24,516 nt of DNA from a virus, in IMG/VR virus record IMGVR_UViG_3300022744_000095, positions 1-24,516 of that record, one strand, 5' to 3'. Positions 3,845 to 24,516 of this stretch are shown in pieces (the first letter of the stretch is position 1; each line of letters begins with the position of its first letter). The notes beneath the pieces were generated by a model, which was given only the letters and a program-made list of their open reading frames with translations, did not search any database and was not told the DNA's origin. The position numbers and the translations under genes were made by a program.

Positions 3845-4681
3845 TTAAATTTCCTGCGTTCCCAGGGACATCACGAGCCCGCCCGCCTCGATCTGGAAGA
3901 AGCTCCCCGCCCCTACCACCCGTCCGTTGCCAGGCAGAGGCCGGGCAAATTTGGGCGCCCCATTGCTCGTGGAGCTGAGGCCCACATACTTCACCCGGCC
4001 ATACGCTCCTGTGGCCCCGCCACTGGCGGGCCAGCGCAGTGCGCTCACGTTGCGGCGCGCCCGTTTGCCGGGCACCGTTGCGGACTCCCAATGGCTGCCG
4101 TCATTCGCCACGCTGATTCGGCTGTAGCCAGTCCCGGACGTGCTCACTTCGCTGCCGCCGTTGAATGGATTGTCCAGCCACAGGCTGAGGTACCACGAAG
4201 CCGGGATGCTCAGCGTGTCGCCGTTGAGAATGCGGGCGAGAATGCCCGCGGCATAGGTGCCATCTACCAGGCCGCCGCCGCTGAGTTCCAGCCGCAGACT
4301 GCCCGCGGGAAAGGTCAGGGTTTCCCCCAACAGCACCGCTCGATCTTCCGGCAATTTCAGGGCCAGATCGGGAGTGCCGGCGCCACCCGCAGTGATGGCG
4401 AGGTAACGCGCCGTTGCCCAGTTGGCAGTGGCTGTCGGGTAATCGAAGTCTGCACTATTCACCATCGCCACGCCGCCATTGATCGCGGTGGCAGCCGTCC
4501 ACAGCAGATCGTTCGTGTCATACTCGAACGGAGCATAGGCACTGCCGCTCAGCCCCGCGCCACTATCAAACGGATTGCCGTCGTAGAGATCGGCGTCGCG
4601 GTCTATCGGCGTCACGGCCCATGTGCCACCGCCAAAGAGCGCAGTGAGAATCGTGTCCCCGTAGGAGTCGGCGATCAGCAT
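3845..4681 (-). CDS. Tail fibre-like protein with two tandem Gp80-type domains
   Basis: This 278-residue protein resembles the small phage tail-fibre-like (Gp80-type) family twice over. The second half (about residues 140-275) follows the family pattern closely: ARILNGDTLSIPASWYLSL, GGSEVSTSGTGYSR, a central block ending LRWPASG, YGRVKYVGLSS, then FFQIEAGGLVMSL. The first half (about 1-135) shows a diverged copy: a start around ILTALFGGGTWAV, a middle YDGNPFDSGAGLSGSAYA, WATARYLAI, and LGETLTFPAGSLRLEL. Family members usually have one copy of about 125-140 residues, so this looks like an internal duplication. A strong Shine-Dalgarno (CGGAGG) sits 6-7 bases before the ATG, unusual in this arm and consistent with high expression of a virion part. 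Confidence 0.72.
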   Translation of the reverse strand: MLIADSYGDTILTALFGGGTWAVTPIDRDADLYDGNPFDSGAGLSGSAYAPFEYDTNDLLWTAATAINGGVAMVNSADFDYPTATANWATARYLAITAGGAGTPDLALKLPEDRAVLLGETLTFPAGSLRLELSGGGLVDGTYAAGILARILNGDTLSIPASWYLSLWLDNPFNGGSEVSTSGTGYSRISVANDGSHWESATVPGKRARRNVSALRWPASGGATGAYGRVKYVGLSSTSNGAPKFARPLPGNGRVVGAGSFFQIEAGGLVMSLGTQEI

Positions 4682-9820: not shown

Positions 9821-10024
9821 CTAGCGCAAACAGGCCATCGCCTCGCCCTCTTCCGTGACCGTGGCTCCCAGCCATTCCATGCTTTCACGCGTTGGCTGAG
9901 GCGGCAGCGTCCGAAACACGTGTGGGGGACTTCCGGAAACCCTTACGTTGTCAGGCATGGCCTCGCAGGTGTATTCATACTCCACAGTGGAGCCGTCCGG
10001 AAATGTTGCAGTCATCGTCTTCAT
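9821..10024 (-). CDS. Small protein coupled to the MuF-metallopeptidase gene, unknown
   Basis: This 67-residue protein starts at ATG 10024 and overlaps the MuF stop by 4 bases (ATGA), so its dose should follow MuF. It begins with a strand pair (MKTMTATFPDGSTVEYEYTC) and continues with a Pro-rich loop and a short amphipathic helix. There is no membrane segment. Two possibilities fit: an ordinary head accessory protein, or a partner/immunity protein for the metallopeptidase domain of the upstream gene. In polymorphic toxin loci the immunity gene lies directly downstream, which is why the second is worth naming. The sequence alone does not decide between them. Confidence 0.6.
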   Translation of the reverse strand: MKTMTATFPDGSTVEYEYTCEAMPDNVRVSGSPPHVFRTLPPQPTRESMEWLGATVTEEGEAMACLR

Positions 10025-11529
10025 GGCTTTTGAACCATGGTAATCATCAACCGCAGGATGTCCAGCGCCACCCGGCCATGCTTGCCGCCCAGTGCGTCGC
10101 TCAGCATCGCTGCGCCCGCCAGCATTTCCATATGTACTGGCCCGATCTCTTTGCCGTCCCTTTGCGCTGCATATGGGTCGAAGTATTTACCTTTCTCCCC
10201 ACCGCGCGCCTCCCACTCCTTGAGCAGAGCCTGCCGCCATTGTGCTCCCTTCCAGGGATGCGACAACAGCCAGTGGGTCATCTCGTGGAAAATCAGCTTT
10301 CTCAACAACGTCTCAGACTGTGTGAGTCTGTGAGCTTTGTTGAGTCTCACCGTTCTCCCGTTATAGCTTCCAGCCTCCCCGCGGTCCTCTGCCGCCGCCG
10401 GATCATCATACCATTCCACCACCACAGTATTCAGCTCACGAGCGTAGTCGGAAGGCACGAATTTCAGGAAATCCGCTGCCGCCGCATAAATCACGGCGTC
10501 TGGCTGAGACCCGCTCCCCGTGATGCCCTGAATCACCTCCGGCATGGCCTGATCGCCGCGTTCCAGAGCGAAGAGCAGCGCCTGAGCATTCGCGTACGAT
10601 CTGCCCACTGTCTCGGCATTCACTCCCGCTGACTGCATGGCCTCTGCCAGAGATCTCCGGGGAGCCCGTGGAGCCTCGCGCTCCACATGGGCCGCCCATA
10701 CAGTTCTCCCATCCTCCATCGTGCAATGTTGAGCCCAGCCCTTCCACGCCTCCCACACCGGCGCATCATACCGCGCCTCGATGTCCGACAGCTTCATGCC
10801 CACATCCCCGGCGCGGAATTCGAATTCGCTCTCTCCGCGTTCCTTTGGCGTGCGCACGTCGAACATGACGGCAGCGCCGCGCTTGTGCCCGCCGCGTGAA
10901 TCGGGGCGTCCGGTAAAGAGATACCCGGTCTCCAGCCGGGCCAGCGCTTCGGCATCCAGCACGCGCACATTCTCCGGCAGAGTGCTGCCTGACAAATCCT
11001 CCGCGCCCATCTCCTCGGCCTCTTCCCGGGTAATGGCTACCTTCTCACACCGGCAGCCCCACTCCCAAGGTCCGGTATGCGTTTCCCAAAACGGGTGATT
11101 CGTGGGCAGCACTTTGCCGTGCAGCGCCGCGTGCGTATCCCGCTCCCGTCCATCCATGGTGCATACATACTGGCAAAATGGAAACACGTCTTCGTGAGCC
11201 TTAATGGCCCGGTGATTCCCCGCGCTGTATGCCTGAAAGCCATGCAGCCTCAGCAGCAGCTCAGCCCGGGCCTGTGCCGCCGCCTCAGTGTCAAACCATG
11301 GCCCCATGTCCGCCGCGATCTCCTTCTTGATCGTATCCCAGTCGCCTCCCAGCGGCAGATCCGCGATGCGGTCGCGGATGGTTTGCAGCGTGTCCATGCA
11401 TTCGATCCCGGCGATGGTGAACGCGTGCAGTTGCAACTCCGGCAGCATTTGCTGGAATACTTCCCGCGTGACGATAGACTTTCCCGCGATCAGCGCGGAT
11501 ACCTGCTGGTTGGGTTGAATTAGGGCCAT
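10021..11529 (-). CDS. MuF minor head protein fused to an HExxH metallopeptidase-like domain
   Basis: About 502 residues from ATG 11529; a TTG at 11544 is also possible but would overlap the upstream gene. The MuF domain covers roughly residues 75-165, with C119 and C123 (CQYVC), H133, the HPFW motif near 145-148, and C159/C161 (CRC). It is followed by a Mu F-like Trp-rich segment (VWEAWKGWAQ). Residues about 290-500 add a domain with strand TVVVEWYDD and the zinc-binding motif HEMTH at 415-419, with a downstream HMEML at about 466-470 as possible third ligand. Mu F is about 425 residues and lacks this motif. MuF-toxin fusions are a known polymorphic toxin class in temperate phages. The extension could instead be a virion protease. 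It lies four bases after its upstream neighbour. Confidence 0.8.
   Translation of the reverse strand: MALIQPNQQVSALIAGKSIVTREVFQQMLPELQLHAFTIAGIECMDTLQTIRDRIADLPLGGDWDTIKKEIAADMGPWFDTEAAAQARAELLLRLHGFQAYSAGNHRAIKAHEDVFPFCQYVCTMDGRERDTHAALHGKVLPTNHPFWETHTGPWEWGCRCEKVAITREEAEEMGAEDLSGSTLPENVRVLDAEALARLETGYLFTGRPDSRGGHKRGAAVMFDVRTPKERGESEFEFRAGDVGMKLSDIEARYDAPVWEAWKGWAQHCTMEDGRTVWAAHVEREAPRAPRRSLAEAMQSAGVNAETVGRSYANAQALLFALERGDQAMPEVIQGITGSGSQPDAVIYAAAADFLKFVPSDYARELNTVVVEWYDDPAAAEDRGEAGSYNGRTVRLNKAHRLTQSETLLRKLIFHEMTHWLLSHPWKGAQWRQALLKEWEARGGEKGKYFDPYAAQRDGKEIGPVHMEMLAGAAMLSDALGGKHGRVALDILRLMITMVQKP
10301..10344 (-). repeat. Nested inverted repeats inside the HExxH coding region
   Basis: CTCAACAA (10301-10308) pairs with TTGTTGAG (10337-10344), and inside it CAGACT (10314-10319) pairs with AGTCTG (10325-10330) around a GTGTG loop. 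The nested stems lie just upstream of the HEMTH codons in the mRNA direction. In RNA they would form a two-tier hairpin. A role in slowing translation before the peptidase motif is possible, but it may be chance. Confidence 0.4.
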
Positions 11530-11533
11530 GGCG

Positions 11534-11980
11534 TTAGTCTTCAAATCCTTTCTCTGTCATCACTGCGGCGCGGCTTTTGAGCAGCGTTGCCGCCGCCCTC
11601 ACCTCCTCAGCCGTCACCGGCTCGTGTTTCTGACCCACCTTGCGGTAGTCCACTGCTGGCCCGGACGGCATGGAGGGAATGCGGCTTGGGGCCGGGGCCT
11701 TCACCCTGCTGCGGAACAACATCAGATCCTCCTCGAACCGGTCCAGCGCAGTGAAGTTGCTGAATTTGAGTGCCCCGCGGTTCCGCTCCTGTCTCGCGAT
11801 GCCCTTGAGCAGATGCTTCAGCAGATCGCTCACATCGTCGGCGCGGTAGCCGGCCTGATGCAGCTGCATCCATGCATATTCCCGCTGCATATTCCAGGGG
11901 AGCGGCATCCCGCTGCCCTCGCAGTAGGCGCGGTGCATGGCCCGGCATTCGGTCTGGGCTGGCGTTTCGTTAGTCGGCAT
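11534..11980 (-). CDS. Helical phage protein before MuF, unknown
   Basis: This 148-residue protein starts at ATG 11980 inside the end of the Zn-ribbon gene (about 11 bases overlap) and ends four bases before MuF. The N-terminal 75 residues look helical with conserved-looking aromatic and acidic patches (NMQREYAWMQLHQAGYRADDVSDLLKHL's region, residues 30-56), a pattern of early phage replication-associated proteins. The middle is Pro/Ser-rich and the C-terminus is another helix with TAEEVRAAATLLKSRAAV. No family is recognised. The position just ahead of MuF is where a terminase or portal would normally be. At this length it is neither. Confidence 0.6.
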   Translation of the reverse strand: MPTNETPAQTECRAMHRAYCEGSGMPLPWNMQREYAWMQLHQAGYRADDVSDLLKHLLKGIARQERNRGALKFSNFTALDRFEEDLMLFRSRVKAPAPSRIPSMPSGPAVDYRKVGQKHEPVTAEEVRAAATLLKSRAAVMTEKGFED

Positions 11981-12173
11981 GGTGAAGGTCCGGGTATTTG
12001 ACTTTGAGCGATGCCCAGCAGCCCGGGCAGTAAAGAGCTTTCAGAGTGGCGGGCTCGCCACACTGGAGGCAGCGCGGGCGGCTCAGATCGCGCGCATTCG
12101 TGGCGAAGGCATCCGTGTTGCTCTTGCCGATTTTCCGGGCGTGAATGATTAGAGTTTTTCTCGTGTCCATCAT
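11970..12173 (-). CDS. Small zinc-ribbon protein
   Basis: This 67-residue protein has a basic N-terminus (TRKTLIIHARKIGKS) and a single zinc-ribbon-like pair: C35-x2-C38 (CLQC) and C49-x2-C52 (CPGC). It overlaps the upstream DnaA-like gene by ATGA at 12173-12170, so the two are translationally coupled. Small Zn-ribbon proteins of this kind are frequent in phage early regions, where many bind DNA or modify host polymerases, but the function here is unknown. Confidence 0.65.
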   Translation of the reverse strand: MMDTRKTLIIHARKIGKSNTDAFATNARDLSRPRCLQCGEPATLKALYCPGCWASLKVKYPDLHHAD

Positions 12174-12547
12174 GGTTGAGCGCTGAGATATTCCGTGATC
12201 GCGCGGAAGTCGGGATCGGCGGCCCGCAAGTCCTCTGCCCGTTGCAACAGGTGCCGTGCCGTGCCGTGGTCTGTGCGGCCCAGCAGCGCGGCGATGCTCT
12301 CAAACGACATTACCGGCTCGTTTTGCCGCAAGGCCCATACGACCGCCGCCCTCGCCTGAGTCTGACGGGCAAACCTCCGGGCATCCGTCATAGCCTCCGG
12401 CGACAGCCGGAAAGCTTTGGCCGCCAGCGCTACCAGCCGCTCGCCCCGGCTGCGCATTGGCCTGCTGCCGTTGCGGGTGAAGCTGCGCACGGGCAACTCC
12501 GTAACCCACATCAGTAAGCTGCCGCGGTTTGTCATCTGCACTGTCAT
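12170..12547 (-). CDS. Stand-alone DnaA domain IV-like DNA-binding protein
   Basis: From ATG 12547 this gives 125 residues. About residues 48-120 align with the DnaA C-terminal domain. A basic helix (DARRFARQTQARAAVVWALRQ) is followed by SFESIAALLGRTDHGTARHLLQRAEDL, matching the DnaA signature GGRDHTTVLHA in spacing and in the conserved D-H, then a tail helix DPDFRAITEYL. The AAA+ ATPase domain is absent. In full DnaA this domain binds DnaA boxes. As a stand-alone protein it may bind such boxes for replication or regulation, or compete with host DnaA. The start at 12547 overlaps or abuts the upstream stop at 12549. Longer starts only extend into the upstream gene. Confidence 0.75.
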   Translation of the reverse strand: MTVQMTNRGSLLMWVTELPVRSFTRNGSRPMRSRGERLVALAAKAFRLSPEAMTDARRFARQTQARAAVVWALRQNEPVMSFESIAALLGRTDHGTARHLLQRAEDLRAADPDFRAITEYLSAQP

Positions 12548-12548
12548 T

Positions 12549-13241
12549 TCAGTTCTCCAGCTTGAATTGTTCTTCGCTGCCATTGCCCAGCGCGCGCTGT
12601 CCATCGCCGGAGAGTTTGCGCTTCCAGTCATTCTCCGGAAGGCGGTTCAACGCCTGTTGAGCCGCGGCAAATTCATCGTCTGTCATTCTGCGGCCTGACT
12701 TGCCAGAGTCCGGCACATCCAAGCCATAGCGGGCGGCCATCGCTACCAGCAGCGCTTCGCGTTCAAGGCTTATTCCGTCCAGCCTTTTTTTGAACCGGCG
12801 TTCATTCTCCCGCTGCACTCGGCGCGCCTCCGCTTTCACAAACTTTCGCCGCTCTTCTATTTTCGCCAGCTCCTGTTGTAGTATGGCCATGTAATGCCGG
12901 GTGGCATCCACAATGTCCATCTCTTGAGCGATGGTCACACTGAGCGTCCATTCCTCCAATCCTCGACCGGCTTTCCTGCGTCCCCGCAGCTTCAGCGGAT
13001 TTTGTTTCAGCAGCCAGCAGGCGATGCGCAGCCAAAGTTTTTGCGCCAGATTTTCAGTGCTGACAATAAAGGGCACATCCCGCGGCGCATCGCCATTCAT
13101 CTGAGCCTCTGTCAGCCCCGCTTTGCGGAGACGCTCTGCCAAAAGACGGCCTGCGGTTTCCCTCTCCTGAGCGGAGGCGGCGGGATCATCCCTCATCGCT
13201 TTGAGGCTTTGTAGTGTGTTCCAGTTCGATTCGGAGTTCAT
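12549..13241 (-). CDS. DUF2786-like phage protein, tentative
   Basis: This 230-residue protein begins with a helical N-terminus (NTLQSLKAMRDDPAASAQERETAGRLLAERLR in residues 8-39, with the x-A-x-x-ER-T-A pattern of DUF2786) and is followed by a domain around 58-105 with WLRIACWLLKQNP. A long charged coiled coil runs from about 110 to 160 (EERRKFVKAEARRVQRENERRFKK is its core). DUF2786/DUF7168 proteins are common in phages and conjugative elements but their role is poorly known. The identification rests on a pattern match to memory. The stop abuts the DnaA-like gene. Confidence 0.5.
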   Translation of the reverse strand: MNSESNWNTLQSLKAMRDDPAASAQERETAGRLLAERLRKAGLTEAQMNGDAPRDVPFIVSTENLAQKLWLRIACWLLKQNPLKLRGRRKAGRGLEEWTLSVTIAQEMDIVDATRHYMAILQQELAKIEERRKFVKAEARRVQRENERRFKKRLDGISLEREALLVAMAARYGLDVPDSGKSGRRMTDDEFAAAQQALNRLPENDWKRKLSGDGQRALGNGSEEQFKLEN

Positions 13242-18578: not shown

Positions 18579-20429
18579 TTAGGTCGCTGCCAGTTGTTTG
18601 GAGTCCTCCGCCATGCGGGCAGCGAGCGCGCGGCGGTGGAGAGTGACGAGGTCGGGGGCTGGAGCCGAGGCCGGGGCGCGGCGCGGGGCCGGGGTTTCCG
18701 CGGGCTCTTCGCGGGCCGGTTGCGGGGCGGTTGCGGCGTCTTCGCGCGGGACCATCGGCCCGGCGTGATGGGCGCGCCCGGCGGCGTCGGTGAAGCGACT
18801 GCGCCGCGAGAGACTGGCAGCCGCGCCCTGCGGAAAGACGGCGCGGAACTCGCTGCGCAGGGCGGCGGCGGCCATGCGCTGGGGATCGTAGTCGGAAGCG
18901 ACGGCACTGAGGTTCTCTTGAGGCACATCGGCCCAGTGGGCGGCGAGGCCCAGCGGCTCCAGCAGGCGGAAGCCCTCGCGGTTCACCCGGCGGCCATGCT
19001 CCACACTGCGACCTTCCTTCAGCTCTGCATTGAAAAGGTGGCAGCCAGCGCCCGGATTCGCCGGATCGAACGCGGCAAACACTCGATGCCCATAGTCCAG
19101 CGTGGGCAAGCCCGGCGTACCATGCACGAGGAACCGGAAACTCACCGGCCAATGCTCGACTTTGCATTCATACACGCCATTCCTCACCGCCCCGGCGGCC
19201 TTCACCGGGAGCAGCCTCCATGCTTCCGACGGGGGCACCGCCCGGCGCTGAGGCGCGCCCCATGCCTCGGCGGGCGTCGTGGGCACATTGCCCAGCGCGC
19301 GGCGCGTTTGTGGCGTGGCGTGGTACTCCGCAATCGCCTCGGCATGGGCATTCTGCGCCTCGACCATCGTCCAGAACTTGCGCAGGGCCTCTGCGTTGCC
19401 TTCGATGGCCTGGCGATAGAGCCGCGCCGTGTAGAAGAACTCGCCGCGCACATTGCCCAGCCCGGTGAATCGCGCCCGGCAGAGCTGCTGATAGAGCTTA
19501 AATGCACCCTCGATCTCGCTCTTGCCCCGAGGGCTGAATTTCTGGCGGCAGCGGAAGAGCACGCCGTCGAGCGCGCCGAACACCATGTCCGCAGGCAGCA
19601 TCCACGACGGCTTGGGCTTGAGGCCGTAGAGGTAATTGTTATCCCACACGCCCCGCTCGAATCTCCACATGAGCGGCAGCCCGGCGGTGGCGATCACATC
19701 GCGCACATGACTGGCGATGTCCTCGACCCGGTAGGCATCCTTGCGGCGGCCAATGAGCGTCTCGCCTAACACCGCATGGCTGTAGAGGTCGCAGGTAATG
19801 AGCGCCTGTCTGCCAACGCTCTCCCTGCCCTGCGCAGCATCCCAGTAACGGAACGGCTCGTTGTGGCTCATGTCATCGGAGCTGAAGATGTGGCCGGCAG
19901 CGACATGATGCATCTCGCCGTCTTCATCCACCCAGATCATGGCGCGCCGGGCGCTGGCCTTTACGGTCAGCGGGGCATGGCCGCCGTTGAGTGCCGTGCT
20001 GATGTTCCGGCTCACCTGCATCGCGCGACGCACGGTGATGGGGTAGCTGCGCTTCCCGCTCACAAGGATGCGGCGCAGTCCCTCTATCGTCTCTGGCCTC
20101 GCCGGGGCCAGCTCTGGATGGAGCCGCTGCGCTACCGGGGCGGCGCTGTCATCCAGCCATGCCTTGAGCCCGGACTCCTGATTCTTCTTGAGCGCGCACC
20201 ATGCGGTGAGTCCGCTGGCTTCCTCCTGAGTTAGCTCCAATGCCGCCGGGCGGCCTGTGCTCTTGCCATCATGCAGCGCCGCCAGTCCGCCCGTGCTCTC
20301 CTTTGCGGCCCAGCGGTAATACGTGCCCCGCGGCACGCCATGCCGCAGGCAGCATTCCTGAGCGTCTCCGCCCGCCGCGATGCACGCGCGGATCAATTCG
20401 AGTTTCTGAGCTTTCTGCACGGCGGTCAT
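18579..20429 (-). CDS. MuA-like DDE transposase
   Basis: This 616-residue protein catalyses phage transposition. The N-terminal 45 residues look like an HTH (CCLRHGVPRGTYYRWAAK). The rve-type core shows the catalytic pattern: D185/D186 in FSSDDMSHNEP, a conserved ALITCDLYSHAVLG strand, D263 in RFERGVWDNN and E307 in KSEIEGAF. Spacing (about 77 and 44) is close to that of MuA. A beta-barrel-like domain follows (GVYECKVEHWPVSFRFLV through GAGCHLFNA) and a Pro/Ala-rich, basic C-terminus (ALHRR-like helix) matches the domain III/MuB-contact region. MuA is 663 residues. Clear identification; the end-binding sites were not found in the window. Confidence 0.9.
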   Translation of the reverse strand: MTAVQKAQKLELIRACIAAGGDAQECCLRHGVPRGTYYRWAAKESTGGLAALHDGKSTGRPAALELTQEEASGLTAWCALKKNQESGLKAWLDDSAAPVAQRLHPELAPARPETIEGLRRILVSGKRSYPITVRRAMQVSRNISTALNGGHAPLTVKASARRAMIWVDEDGEMHHVAAGHIFSSDDMSHNEPFRYWDAAQGRESVGRQALITCDLYSHAVLGETLIGRRKDAYRVEDIASHVRDVIATAGLPLMWRFERGVWDNNYLYGLKPKPSWMLPADMVFGALDGVLFRCRQKFSPRGKSEIEGAFKLYQQLCRARFTGLGNVRGEFFYTARLYRQAIEGNAEALRKFWTMVEAQNAHAEAIAEYHATPQTRRALGNVPTTPAEAWGAPQRRAVPPSEAWRLLPVKAAGAVRNGVYECKVEHWPVSFRFLVHGTPGLPTLDYGHRVFAAFDPANPGAGCHLFNAELKEGRSVEHGRRVNREGFRLLEPLGLAAHWADVPQENLSAVASDYDPQRMAAAALRSEFRAVFPQGAAASLSRRSRFTDAAGRAHHAGPMVPREDAATAPQPAREEPAETPAPRRAPASAPAPDLVTLHRRALAARMAEDSKQLAAT

Positions 20430-21577: not shown

Positions 21578-21930
21578 GACCGCGCTCCTTTCTGTTTGGA
21601 TTTAGTTGCACGGCGGGGGTTGCAGCGGCGGGGGGCGGCGATGCCAAACTTTCTGCGAAGCTTTGTCATCTCGGCATGCAGCCGCATGAATTCGCTGCGC
21701 AGCATTTCCGGCGCCATTGGCGATTCCGCATCTTCAGCTATGTGCGCACTGAGCCGACCTTCTATCAGAGCCAGCAGTATGGCTGTTTCATAAGTCGGAC
21801 GTGTGGTGTGCCATTCGAGGAATGAAATCGCCGCCCCGGACAGCGCCGGGCGCGGAAGGCTTTTCAGCAGTTCCGCGGCTAGACCCGCTTGGAGGCTGTG
21901 CTTTAACAGAATGTTGGATGTTGTGTTCAT
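21574..21930 (-). CDS. Small early protein, unknown
   Basis: From ATG 21930 this gives 118 residues: MNTTSNILLKHSLQAGLAAELL (helical), a central segment with LSGAAISFLEWHTTRPTYETAILLALIEG, and a strongly basic C-terminus (RRCNPRRATKSKQKG) that probably binds nucleic acid. Its stop couples to the next gene. It lies 29 bases after the Ner-like gene, so it is first or second in the early transcript. The function is not recognised. Confidence 0.6.
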   Translation of the reverse strand: MNTTSNILLKHSLQAGLAAELLKSLPRPALSGAAISFLEWHTTRPTYETAILLALIEGRLSAHIAEDAESPMAPEMLRSEFMRLHAEMTKLRRKFGIAAPRRCNPRRATKSKQKGARS

Positions 21931-21959
21931 GCGTTGCGAAACTCGAAGGCAAAAAAAGA

Positions 21960-22157
21960 CTAACCAACTTTGCTCAGGTGGCGAGCCTTCCACTCATTGA
22001 GCGCGGCCAATGCTGACGGGCTCTGGCGCTTCCCTCTCGCCAGCTGACTAATATAACTGCGTGAAAGTCCAAGGTCCGACGCTGCAAACTTTTGCCAGCT
22101 TGGAGCCGGACCGGGCGGGCGTCGGAGGTGAATAAACTTCTTGCGCAAACGTTTCAT
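21960..22157 (-). CDS. Ner/Cro-like HTH regulator, first early gene
   Basis: From ATG 22157 this gives 65 residues. A short HTH_3-like fold is visible: WQKFAASDLGLSRSYISQLARGKRQSPSALAALNEW, with helix 2 SRSYISQLARG the likely recognition helix. It is divergent from the repressor gene across a 63-base region. Ner in Mu holds this exact position and represses the early and repressor promoters. The upstream frame continues to 22406 but that extension overlaps the divergent repressor gene and is unlikely to be used. Confidence 0.75.
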   Translation of the reverse strand: MKRLRKKFIHLRRPPGPAPSWQKFAASDLGLSRSYISQLARGKRQSPSALAALNEWKARHLSKVG

Positions 22158-22220
22158 TTGGTTTCGTATCTTGTGGACCCACCTTGGCACACAACCTTTC
22201 ACAACGCAAGAACAATTTTT
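22158..22220. promoter_or_regulatory. Divergent operator/promoter region between Ner-like and repressor genes
   Basis: This 63-base gap separates the two HTH genes. CACAA appears at 22190-22194 and 22200-22204, 10 bases apart (one turn of DNA), and its complement TTGTG at 22171-22175. These are candidate operator half-sites for one of the HTH proteins. For the minus direction a weak pair is visible: TTGTGT with GATACG 18 bases later. Neither a -10 nor -35 is strong on either strand, which is usual for a repressed phage switch. The repressor start has an AAGAAC-rich upstream region and no clear Shine-Dalgarno. Confidence 0.5.
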
Positions 22221-22619
22221 ATGAATCGCGAAACTTTCCCCCTCTGGCTTCAGGAGCGCATGACTGAACGAAGCTGGACTCAGGCCGATCTGGCGCGTCA
22301 CATGCGGACAAACAGCAGTACGGTGAAGCGTTGGCTGGACGGCTCCATACCTCACGCTAAAACCCTGTCTGAGCTGCAATCCCTGCTCAAGCCTCTCCAG
22401 TCGCATTTGAAGGAAGAGCCTATCGAATACATTGTTAGGCGTGATCTCGCAGAGGTGTTTTCCCTAACCATTTCCAAGAATCCGGCGCTGGCGCTGGAGT
22501 TCTGTATGGACTTCATCACTCAGGCCCGCGGCGGCGATGCGTCTGCGCTGGAAAAAGCAGAGATGCTGCTTAAACTCTTTGCTGAACATCTCCAAACCCA
22601 AGCTGCCTGCAAAAAATGA
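22221..22619 (+). CDS. CI-like HTH repressor of lysogeny
   Basis: From ATG 22221 this gives 132 residues; a longer frame to 22092 would overlap the Ner-like gene. The N-terminal HTH_XRE fold is visible: RMTERSWTQADLARHMRTNSSTVKRWLDGS, with STVKRWLDG as recognition helix, followed by a helical extension with LSELQSLLKPLQSHLK. The C-terminal half (residues 70-130) looks like an oligomerisation domain. There is no Ser-Lys protease motif of SOS-cleaved repressors. It is transcribed away from the early genes, as in Mu, and its stop overlaps the next gene by ATGA. Confidence 0.78.
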   Translation: MNRETFPLWLQERMTERSWTQADLARHMRTNSSTVKRWLDGSIPHAKTLSELQSLLKPLQSHLKEEPIEYIVRRDLAEVFSLTISKNPALALEFCMDFITQARGGDASALEKAEMLLKLFAEHLQTQAACKK

Positions 22620-23068
22620 ACCCTCGCTACTATTTACGCCTCAACGGTTGTGAGGAAACCGGGCCGCATGATGCACTGGAAATTGCCGAGGCGGTGCGCT
22701 GCGGGGCGCTGCCGCTGCATTGTCAGGCCCGGCGGGAAGGAGAGCACGCATGGCACACCGCTTCATGGCTGTGTGACCAGGATGGATTCGTCTGGCGCGA
22801 GGCAGCACGCCCGGCCCCGCCAGTGCAGCCGGCTCCTCTGCCGCCTCAACCGCAGCCGGTGTATGTGCCTGTCCCCGGCCCCGCTCAAATCATGATGCAG
22901 CCGCGCGGCAGCGGATGTCTGCCAGCCTTTGCCGGAGGTCTTACCGGATGCGCGCTGCTGTCCGTGCTGGCGTTGGCCTTTTCCATCTTCGTATTCAAGT
23001 CGTGTGTGGAGTCGCTGTCTCGCTCTGCGAAGGAAGCACCCCCACTCCCCCCGCCTGCCACAAAATGA
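22616..23068 (+). CDS. GYF_2 (DUF4339) membrane protein
   Basis: This 150-residue protein starts with the GYF_2 pattern: YYLRLNGCEETGPHDALEIAEAVR (residues 4-27), a GALPLHCQARREGEHAWHTASW segment, then a Pro-rich linker (PAPPVQPAPLPPQPQPVYVP) and one membrane segment (about 104-128, GGLTGCALLSVLALAFSIFVF). GYF-like domains bind proline-rich partners. The family is abundant in Verrucomicrobia and Planctomycetes. The start ATG overlaps the repressor stop (ATGA, 22616-22619). Expression with the repressor implies a role in the lysogen such as superinfection exclusion or another surface change. Confidence 0.75.
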   Translation: MNPRYYLRLNGCEETGPHDALEIAEAVRCGALPLHCQARREGEHAWHTASWLCDQDGFVWREAARPAPPVQPAPLPPQPQPVYVPVPGPAQIMMQPRGSGCLPAFAGGLTGCALLSVLALAFSIFVFKSCVESLSRSAKEAPPLPPPATK

Positions 23069-23610
23069 AACTCATGCCCATTCTCCTCGAAACCCTCAAC
23101 TCCGACCACACGGGCTGGCAGCCAGTGAGGACGCTGGCAACAGTGGCGGAAGCCGAGAAGTTGCGCACGCTGCTCAATGGCGCGCATACCATGCGCATCG
23201 CGCGCCCGCTGCTCTGTGCTGATCTGTGGCGGGTGGAATATTTGTCCCATCCCCACAGCCTCTATTGGAAGCAGTTCTGGTCAGGACCGGCCTGCGAAGC
23301 GCAGGAAGCGCTGGCGGCTGCAGAACTGAAAGGCCCAGCACGCATGGAACCGGTTGCCGCGGCCTCGCCCTCACTCCCTCAGGATGCCGCTGCGGATATA
23401 CAGGCCAGCGCCGCGCCTCTCTTTGGCGGGTTGCTGGTATTAGGCGGAGCCGGCGGGCTGATCTATTCCCTGACCATGGCCACGACGCTGAATGGCGTGG
23501 CCAATCTGGACGGCCAGCATAAGCAAATGGTGGCACTTATCATCAGCGGGCTGGCGATCCTCTGCGGGCTGTTGATCGCGCTGCTCACTGGCAAAACTCC
23601 CCGGGCATGA
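23065..23610 (+). CDS. Membrane protein with soluble N-terminus, unknown
   Basis: From ATG 23065 (ATGA overlap with the previous stop) this gives 181 residues. Residues 1-95 look soluble and contain PILLETLNSDHTGWQPVRTLATVAEAEKLRTLL and aromatic WRVEYLSHPHSLYWKQFW. Two membrane segments follow at about 118-145 (PLFGGLLVLGGAGGLIYSL) and 155-178 (MVALIISGLAILCGLLIALL), with a short basic end. The longer frame beginning at 22915 overlaps the GYF_2 gene and is not needed. Part of the coupled lysogenic operon; no family recognised. Confidence 0.65.
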   Translation: MKLMPILLETLNSDHTGWQPVRTLATVAEAEKLRTLLNGAHTMRIARPLLCADLWRVEYLSHPHSLYWKQFWSGPACEAQEALAAAELKGPARMEPVAAASPSLPQDAAADIQASAAPLFGGLLVLGGAGGLIYSLTMATTLNGVANLDGQHKQMVALIISGLAILCGLLIALLTGKTPRA

Positions 23611-23756
23611 TACGACACCGGTTACTGAGCAGCAAAGCAATGCCGCGATCTGCGAAGTCAGGCGTGACGCTGGACGCTGCATTCTGGAAGGCGCTGCTGT
23701 TTTGGGGCGGGCTGGCGTGGCTGGCGGGCGAAGCATTGACAAGACTGCTGTGTTGA
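23607..23756 (+). CDS. Small single-pass membrane protein of 49 residues
   Basis: It starts with ATGA overlap (23607-23610) with the previous stop. The peptide has a basic N-terminus (MIRHRLLSSKAMPRSAKSG) and one membrane segment with AFWKALLFWGGLAWLAGE. The last codons contain a TTGACA box that looks like the -35 of the following tRNA. It has the size and topology of phage accessory membrane peptides. The coupling strongly suggests it is translated. Confidence 0.6.
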   Translation: MIRHRLLSSKAMPRSAKSGVTLDAAFWKALLFWGGLAWLAGEALTRLLC

Positions 23757-23764
23757 GGTAAAGC
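23736..23764 (+). promoter_or_regulatory. Promoter-like element in front of the tRNA-fMet
   Basis: A perfect TTGACA (23736-23741) is followed after 17 bases by TAAAGC (23759-23764; three of six -10 positions). The predicted start, about 7 bases downstream, would fall near the mature 5' end of the tRNA at 23771. The discriminator ATGGGCC is GC-rich, as in stable-RNA promoters. The element lies in the last codons of the preceding ORF. Confidence 0.6.
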
Positions 23765-23770
23765 ATGGGC

Positions 23771-23847
23771 CGCGGGGTCGCGCAGCCCGGCAGCGCGCAA
23801 GGCTCATAACCTTGAGGCCGCTGGTTCGAATCCAGCCTCCGCAACCA
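23771..23847 (+). tRNA. Initiator tRNA-fMet (CAU), phage-encoded
   Basis: A 77-nt cloverleaf forms with CCA encoded at 23845-23847. Acceptor CGCGGGG (23771-23777) pairs with CTCCGCA (23837-23843), leaving a C1 x A72 mismatch, the hallmark of bacterial initiator tRNA (prevents use in elongation and allows formylation). D stem GCGC/GCGC; anticodon CAT (23805-23807) in loop CTCATAA; T arm GCTGG TTCGAAT CCAGC. Departures from the usual initiator: the anticodon stem is CAAGG/CCTTG, so only two of the three G-C pairs (30:40, 31:39) remain and 29:41 is A-U; D-stem 11:24 is C-G instead of A-U. It sits between the lysogenic operon and a phage structural gene. Confidence 0.93.
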
Positions 23848-23854
23848 TTTCTCC

Positions 23855-23890
23855 AAGCCCCCGCCGGTTTTGCGCCGCGGGGGCTTTTTT
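23855..23890 (+). terminator. Intrinsic terminator after the tRNA
   Basis: AAGCCCCCGC (23855-23864) pairs with GCGGGGGCTT (23877-23886) in a perfect 10-bp stem with a 12-base loop, followed by a T run to 23890. It ends the tRNA transcript and probably also the repressor/membrane protein transcript. Confidence 0.9.
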
Positions 23891-23954
23891 GTGCCGGTGC
23901 GTGGAGAGCGCGGGTGTCCTGCGGAATTCGGGAGCCGGGTTAGAGGTCCGGCAC

Positions 23955-24374
23955 ATGACGCCCGCCGCATCCTTCGATTTTTCCTCAGCCGCTCCGCTCT
24001 TTGCCGGGGCCGTCGCTTCCGACCATGTAATGGAAGGCACCGGCATCACCGCGGGGACGGCAGTGTTGATCATTCTGGGCGGCGGCGCTTTTCTGCTGAG
24101 CATCGTGGTGAACGTGATGAAGCTGCGCAGCTATTCGCGAACCGACCGAAAGACGGAAGCCAAAGCGGAAGCCGCAGACCTCGCCAGCAAAGAGGAGCTG
24201 AAGGAGGCGAAGCGCGAACTGAGGGAAGCTCAGCGGGAATTCAGACAGGAAATTACCAGCGCTCTTCAGGGCCTTACCAAAGAATTTCACGCCGCCCATG
24301 CCGACATGAAGAGCCACATCGGCAAACTCGCGGGCATGGCGGCGGCACATCACCCTAACACATCGCCCAACTGA
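23955..24374 (+). CDS. Mu gp25-like (DUF2730-type) membrane/coiled-coil protein
   Basis: From ATG 23955 with AGAGG about 8 bases upstream this gives 139 residues (the frame is open from 23889 but the upstream part overlaps the terminator). It has one membrane segment (about 30-55, GTAVLIILGGGAFLLSIVVNVM) followed by a long charged coiled coil with SKEELKEAKRELREAQREFR, ending in a short helix. Mu gp25 (DUF2730) has the same layout and precedes the small terminase gene. Spanin-like or holin-associated roles are also possible. Confidence 0.6.
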   Translation: MTPAASFDFSSAAPLFAGAVASDHVMEGTGITAGTAVLIILGGGAFLLSIVVNVMKLRSYSRTDRKTEAKAEAADLASKEELKEAKRELREAQREFRQEITSALQGLTKEFHAAHADMKSHIGKLAGMAAAHHPNTSPN

Positions 24375-24376
24375 TT

Positions 24377-24516
24377 ATGGAGCCGTCCGAGATCCGCAGC
24401 TTAGTGCTCATCTGGCTGTATGAGCGCGCCAGCTTTACCAGTCTGCCGCAGGCAGAAACAGCCATCCTCAACGGGCTCAAACGTGAAGGCTCCGCGCTCG
24501 AACTTCCGCAACTTCG
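24377..24516 (+). CDS. Partial small phage protein, cut by the right edge
   Basis: An ATG at 24377, two bases after the previous stop, opens a frame running off the window. The visible 46 residues (MEPSEIRSLVLIWLYERASF at the start, then SLPQAETAILNGLKREG) look helical. This is a plausible Mu gp26-like position, between gp25 and the terminase genes. The spacing gives good evidence of translation; the family is not assigned. Confidence 0.55.
   Translation, partial: MEPSEIRSLVLIWLYERASFTSLPQAETAILNGLKREGSALELPQL

What the first reader, a model, noticed from the sequence alone, without database searches (positions are those of the whole stretch)
23736..23890. Self-contained initiator tRNA-fMet cassette in a transposable phage
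A complete unit (TTGACA -35, 17-base spacer, GC-rich discriminator, 77-nt tRNA, intrinsic terminator) lies between the lysogenic operon and a phage structural gene. Seen: C1 x A72 mismatch and CAU anticodon, but the anticodon stem keeps only two of three G-C pairs and 11:24 is C-G. Known: bacterial initiator tRNAs depend on these positions, and toxins such as VapC cleave tRNA-fMet in the anticodon region. Inference: the phage may carry a variant initiator to keep initiation going when host tRNA-fMet is cut or scarce, or to favour its SD-poor and GTG/TTG starts. Phage-encoded initiator tRNAs are rarely discussed.
Basis: partly seen in the sequence, partly recalled or inferred. Interest (0 to 1): 0.85.

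Follow-up and report, generated by a model that had tools for sequence, protein, structure and literature searches.

The report
Lone initiator tRNA in a phage
This virus fragment carries one complete tRNA gene of the kind that starts proteins. It bears a base-pair change seen in phage copies but in none of the bacterial start-tRNA genes sampled, and similar lone copies turn up next to DNA-packaging genes in many unrelated phages, so viruses may supply their own protein-starting tRNA.

Summary
The tRNA is real: 23771-23847(+), C1xA72, CAU anticodon, encoded CCA, strong terminator at 23855-23890. "Self-contained cassette" is not supported: the -10 matches 3/6, and the tRNA starts 14 nt after a chain of overlapping genes led by the repressor, so it looks like that operon's last gene. 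"Two of three G-C pairs" is not a phage novelty: A29-U41 is the commonest state in host-junction initiators and occurs in Planctomycetota and Elusimicrobia. The other deviation, C11:G24, is phage-associated: 0 of 294 Planctomycetota genomes (133 had A11:U24) and 0 of 11 cellular genes with the same anticodon stem, against 13 of 37 initiator tRNAs inside viral contigs and 3 of 72 at contig ends (p = 4e-5). A wider pattern emerged: lone initiator tRNAs recur in unrelated phages, often beside terminase, portal or head genes (7 of 18 within 1.5 kb of terminase, 1.1 expected); several are unannotated in GenBank. The window ends before any terminase or portal, so its membership in that pattern is only suggestive. 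Most likely role: a phage-made supplementary initiator. Resistance to tRNA-fMet-targeting toxins is possible, but the anticodon loop is standard. Function is untested.

The parts
23771..23847 (+). initiator-type tRNA (CAU), C1xA72, C11:G24, A29-U41, G57, CCA encoded
   Evidence: ARAGORN; Rfam RF00005; positions
23855..23890 (+). intrinsic terminator (stem-loop 23855-23886 plus U tract)
   Evidence: fold; sequence
23736..23764 (+). proposed promoter TTGACA-17-TAAAGC; weak, begins inside the end of the preceding ORF
   Evidence: sequence; promoter scan negative
23607..23756 (+). 49-aa ORF with one hydrophobic segment, ATGA overlap with the preceding gene, ends 14 nt before the tRNA
   Evidence: translation
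23065..23610 (+). 181-aa protein with two hydrophobic segments
   Evidence: translation; no Pfam or PHROG family in this frame (searches scanned the longer ORF 22915-23610 as listed; those two calls had valid output)
22616..23068 (+). 150-aa GYF_2-like (E 0.006) protein with a hydrophobic segment
22221..22619 (+). HTH repressor-like protein, first gene of the rightward operon
   Evidence: PHROG transcriptional regulator E 5e-7
23955..24374 (+). 139-aa TM plus coiled-coil protein, first gene after the terminator; probable phage late gene, not proven
24377..24516 (+). start of the next ORF, cut by the record end
18579..20429 (-). transposase-like protein (marks a transposable phage)
   Evidence: phrog_310 transposase E 5e-6; HTH_28 and HTH_Tnp_1
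10021..11544 (-). Mu gp30-like minor head protein; no portal or terminase found upstream of it in the window
   Evidence: negative

Best explanation
A phage-encoded supplementary initiator tRNA. It is read as the last gene of the rightward repressor operon, with its 3' side set by the terminator, then processed and charged by the host. C1xA72 should let it be formylated and enter the P site as fMet-tRNA, so it adds to, or replaces, the host initiator when the prophage or infecting phage is expressed. Its C11:G24 pair marks it as belonging to a set of phage-borne initiators that have lost the cellular A11:U24 pair. Shown: the gene, its features, the operon layout, the phage association of C11:G24, and the recurrence of lone initiators near packaging genes in other phages. 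Inferred: expression, charging, formylation and benefit.
For: Intact gene with encoded CCA. Operon overlaps and 14-nt gap and strong terminator. No sampled species genome holds it. C11:G24: 0 of 294 Planctomycetota genomes against 133 with A11:U24; in viral contigs 13 C:G to 24 A:U inside, 3 to 68 at ends, p 4e-5. Viral records with a single, interior initiator tRNA, and packaging or head contexts in unrelated phages. A11:U24 is only a secondary formylation determinant and the 1:72 mismatch the primary one (PMC4611024), so C11:G24 need not stop formylation.
Against: No expression data. No own promoter. The host is unknown, so its initiator could not be compared directly. The tRNA is 670 nt from the record end, and Mu-like gene order would put a phage end somewhere right of the repressor. 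A phage could carry it neutrally.
Confidence: 0.55

Rival explanations
1. Host initiator gene at a phage-host junction: the transposable phage ends between 23756 and 23771, and the tRNA, the terminator and 23955 onward are host DNA.
For: In Mu-like order the repressor reads towards the left phage end (own knowledge); the tRNA is near the record end; many viral contigs carry initiators within 500 nt of their ends (72 of 143).
Against: C11:G24 is absent from 294 Planctomycetota genomes and from the 11 cellular matches and rare at contig ends (3 of 72). No terminase or portal was found in the window, so phage genes must continue beyond an end. The 14-nt spacing from the operon would need an insertion by chance just there.
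Confidence: 0.15
2. Counter-defence: the tRNA replaces host tRNA-fMet when a toxin such as VapC or another initiator-targeting system destroys or blocks it.
For: Initiator-targeting toxins exist, and phage tRNAs are proposed to evade tRNA nucleases (PMC10264068). Phage copies vary at 11:24 and at 29:41 (pyrimidine 29 in 14 of 37 interior against 4 of 72 end-adjacent tRNAs).
Against: The anticodon loop is unchanged. PMC10264068 reports that phages generally avoid encoding tRNA-fMet where VapC-LT2 targets its anticodon. No toxin was identified here.
Confidence: 0.2
3. RNA punctuation: the tRNA is there to be cut out of the transcript, so that RNase P and the 3' processing enzymes trim and separate the mRNAs around it.
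For: It follows an operon at 14 nt and precedes a terminator; in several phages it sits between terminase, portal and head genes on one strand.
Against: Any tRNA would do, yet phiLM21-like prophages with a single tRNA gene carry Met or fMet in 14 of 15 cases (PMC12429752). I searched only for initiators, so this rival is not excluded.
Confidence: 0.15
4. tRNA-dependent lysogeny: the tRNA compensates for a host tRNA gene broken by integration.
For: Known for integrase phages (Guerrero-Bustamante and Hatfull 2024, as cited in PMC12429752).
Against: This is a transposase phage; no integrase was seen among the ORFs scanned, and a tRNA target is not expected for a transposable phage.
Confidence: 0.03

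Closest known systems
Erythrobacter phages vB_EliS_R6L and ZS04 initiator tRNA (unannotated in GenBank)
   Same: Lone tRNA in the fetched region, C1xA72, C11:G24, non-G29, CCA encoded
   Different: Lies between terminase large subunit and portal; not a transposable phage by its annotation; C29
Clavibacter phage CN1A: tRNA, terminator, coiled-coil gene, terminase
   Same: Same order tRNA, terminator, coiled-coil gene
   Different: U1, A11:U24, preceded by tRNA-Trp; terminase present
phiLM21-like prophages with a single tRNA-Met/fMet
   Same: Single CAU tRNA gene in a temperate phage (PMC12429752)
   Different: Integrase phages; phiLM21 itself has A11:U24 and the tRNA upstream of terminase
Cellular initiator tRNA of Elusimicrobia
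   Same: 70/77 identical, A29-U41 shared
   Different: Differs at seven positions, among them A11:U24 and A at the T-loop position where the window has G

Membership tests
Bacterial initiator tRNA (tRNA-fMet) | No Watson-Crick pair at 1:72 | tested here: met
   C1/A72
Bacterial initiator tRNA (tRNA-fMet) | CAU anticodon | tested here: met
Bacterial initiator tRNA (tRNA-fMet) | Three G-C pairs 29:41, 30:40, 31:39 | tested here: not met
   29:41 is A-U; the same state is frequent in cellular initiators, so the textbook feature is not universal and does not exclude it
Bacterial initiator tRNA (tRNA-fMet) | A11:U24 in the D stem | tested here: not met
   C11:G24; hence 'initiator-type', a variant of the kind
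Bacterial initiator tRNA (tRNA-fMet) | Charged, formylated, used in P-site initiation | not testable with these tools
   needs bench work
Phage lone initiator tRNA beside packaging genes | Only tRNA in the record | tested here: met
   but the record is a 24.5-kb fragment
Phage lone initiator tRNA beside packaging genes | Terminase or portal within a few kb | tested here: inconclusive
   none in the window; the record ends 670 nt after the tRNA
Mu-like transposable phage | Transposase plus Mu-type head genes | tested here: met
   the family hits are weak to moderate

The most novel reading that the evidence does not exclude
Unrelated phages have repeatedly acquired a single initiator tRNA, kept it with the packaging and head genes, and let its 11:24 and 29:41 pairs depart from the cellular form because it serves a phage-specific job (driving initiation late in infection, or surviving attacks on host tRNA-fMet). 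The window carries one such tRNA at the end of the repressor operon of a transposable phage.
Probability: 0.35. Interest if true: 0.75.

Novelty: new variant of a known kind. Interest (0 to 1): 0.55.

Why it matters
Most work on phage tRNAs concerns elongator sets and codon use. A lone initiator cannot be explained by codon use, since every gene uses it once. Recurrence next to terminase in unrelated phages, with a pair not found in the sampled host genes, points to control of translation initiation as a phage strategy. It can be tested in culturable phages (R6L, ZS04, DoCa5, CN1A) whose initiator tRNA genes are not even annotated.

Tried and rejected
Relatives of the transposase, capsid, ATPase and 23955 protein in IMG/VR: none. 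Tape-measure relatives L188-L191 were found, but the stretches held carry no tRNA and share only two proteins with the window. Transposase in 100 genomes of the phylum of an Elusimicrobia genome: one weak match over the HTH part. Host not identified; the GYF_2-like gene hints at Verrucomicrobia or Planctomycetes from general knowledge only. First 50 nt of the tRNA, exact, in IMG/VR: no other contig. Anticodon-stem variant as the novelty: rejected after the host survey. Own promoter: rejected. tRNA-dependent lysogeny: rejected for a transposable phage. Repeats that could mark a Mu-type phage end right of the repressor: nothing convincing.

Full report
What is there. The window is a whole IMG/VR record, 24,516 bases, linear. 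One tRNA gene lies at 23771-23847 on the + strand. It has C1/A72, C11:G24, anticodon stem CAAGG/CCTTG, loop CTCATAA, T loop TTCGAAT and an encoded CCA. No tRNA appears in 100 resampled copies of the window. A strong terminator follows at 23855-23890.

How it is probably transcribed. A rightward operon starts with an HTH repressor (22221-22619) and runs through 22616-23068, 23065-23610 and 23607-23756 with ATGA overlaps. The tRNA starts 14 nt after the last stop. The TTGACA of the finding sits inside that last small gene; its -10 partner TAAAGC matches 3 of 6, and the scan finds no sigma-70-like site in 21900-24516. I therefore read the tRNA as the operon's last gene (inference).

Phage or host. 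The leftward strand encodes a transposase-like protein, an AAA ATPase, a Mu gp30-like minor head protein, a gpT-like major head protein, a neck protein and a tape measure. No terminase or portal was found in the 24.5 kb (ORF scans; six-frame profile searches), so those genes should lie beyond an end. The + strand right of the tRNA begins with a TM plus coiled-coil gene of the sort often seen among late phage genes, but its family hits are weak.

Is it a host gene? A pattern that matches the window tRNA (checked) was scanned against one genome for each of 84,980 species. It gave 11 loci (Elusimicrobia, Peribacteria, Planctomycetota and others), at best 70/77 identical, all with A11:U24. So no sampled species carries this gene.

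The anticodon stem. A29-U41 is shared by those 11 cellular genes. It is also the commonest state among viral-contig initiators within 500 nt of a contig end, most of which should be host genes at attachment sites (44 of 68 A11:U24 tRNAs), and it is seen in Planctomycetota. This part of the finding is ordinary. A review in the held library says three G-C pairs occur in all initiators (PMC4611024); these data show otherwise.

The 11:24 pair. In 294 Planctomycetota genomes the A11:U24 pattern occurs in 133 and the C11:G24 pattern in none. In IMG/VR the C11:G24 pattern gives 22 contigs (complete scan) and the alternative at least 120 (capped). Because of the cap only the contrast by position is safe: more than 1.5 kb from the end of the held stretch 13 C:G to 24 A:U, within 500 nt 3 to 68 (Fisher p 4e-5). 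Pyrimidine at 29 shows the same contrast, 14 of 37 against 4 of 72. So C11:G24 is a phage-associated feature, and the window has it.

A recurring context. Many records hold only this tRNA. Neighbours: L032 terminase, portal, tRNA, gp30-like; L066 portal, Mu F-like, tRNA, protease; L037, L039, L042 and L073 tRNA then terminase; L030 terminase then tRNA; L033 major head protein then tRNA. Among named phages: R6L and ZS04 terminase, tRNA, portal; DoCa5 and QDWS359 terminase, tRNA; CN1A tRNA, terminator, coiled-coil gene, terminase; phiLM21 and RHph_TM3_3_3 tRNA upstream of terminase; Dulem virus 40 tRNA 0.6 kb from terminase across the record ends. Counter-examples: L038, L040, L069, NTR1, Pan5, phiKX2. 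For 18 records judged independent with a located terminase, 7 lie within 1.5 kb (1.1 expected), 10 within 3 kb (2.3 expected) and 11 within 4.5 kb (3.4 expected); p at most 5e-5 by random placement. Limits: the records are those I happened to fetch, some terminase edges were estimated from profile hits and neighbouring ORFs, independence was judged by eye, and I have no control set of lone elongator tRNAs.

Literature. Single Met/fMet tRNA genes are on record for phiLM21-like prophages (PMC12429752) and a prophage related to phage 16-3 (PMC10460002). Phage tRNAs are proposed to resist anticodon nucleases through loop changes (PMC10264068); this tRNA has no loop change. Formylation rests mainly on the 1:72 mismatch with A11:U24 secondary (PMC4611024). 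I found no paper in the held library describing the terminase association or the C11:G24 bias; most subscription journals are not held.

Verdict. The gene is sound and very probably the phage's own. Function is inferred, not shown.

Noticed in passing
L013 1003-1079; L167 4001-4077; L178 1656-1731; L168 4000-4076; L176 4000-4076: Complete initiator-type tRNA genes in the GenBank records of phages R6L, ZS04, DoCa5, CN1A and MW202675 that carry no tRNA annotation at those places.
   Followed up: yes
window 23440-23970 (-) and 23804-24103 (-): Spurious antisense ORFs over the tRNA whose translations (LRRLDSNQRPQGYEPCALP, AEAGFEPAASRL) look like the false-protein motifs often read from tRNA genes.
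   Followed up: partly
L032 2797-4935 (+): Portal protein whose C-terminal part matches a PHROG labelled RNA ligase (phrog_755, E 2e-21), next to the initiator tRNA; may be a mislabelled family.
   Followed up: no
record of L045 (G128), 31654 and 61790: Two tRNAs in one 61.9-kb viral record, one beside terminase and one about 40 nt from the record end.
   Followed up: no
L169 3999-4075 and L177 1347-1422: Initiator-like tRNAs of phiLM21 and RHph_TM3_3_3 with G1 and U2, giving two mismatches at the top of the acceptor stem.
   Followed up: no
window 12170-12631 (-): Protein with a DnaA C-terminal helix-turn-helix-like domain (E 2e-5) in the early-to-late gap of the transposable phage.
   Followed up: no
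window 3845-4681 (-): Protein matching a podophage fibre family (Gp80, E 2e-18) inside the head-to-tail gene block.
   Followed up: no
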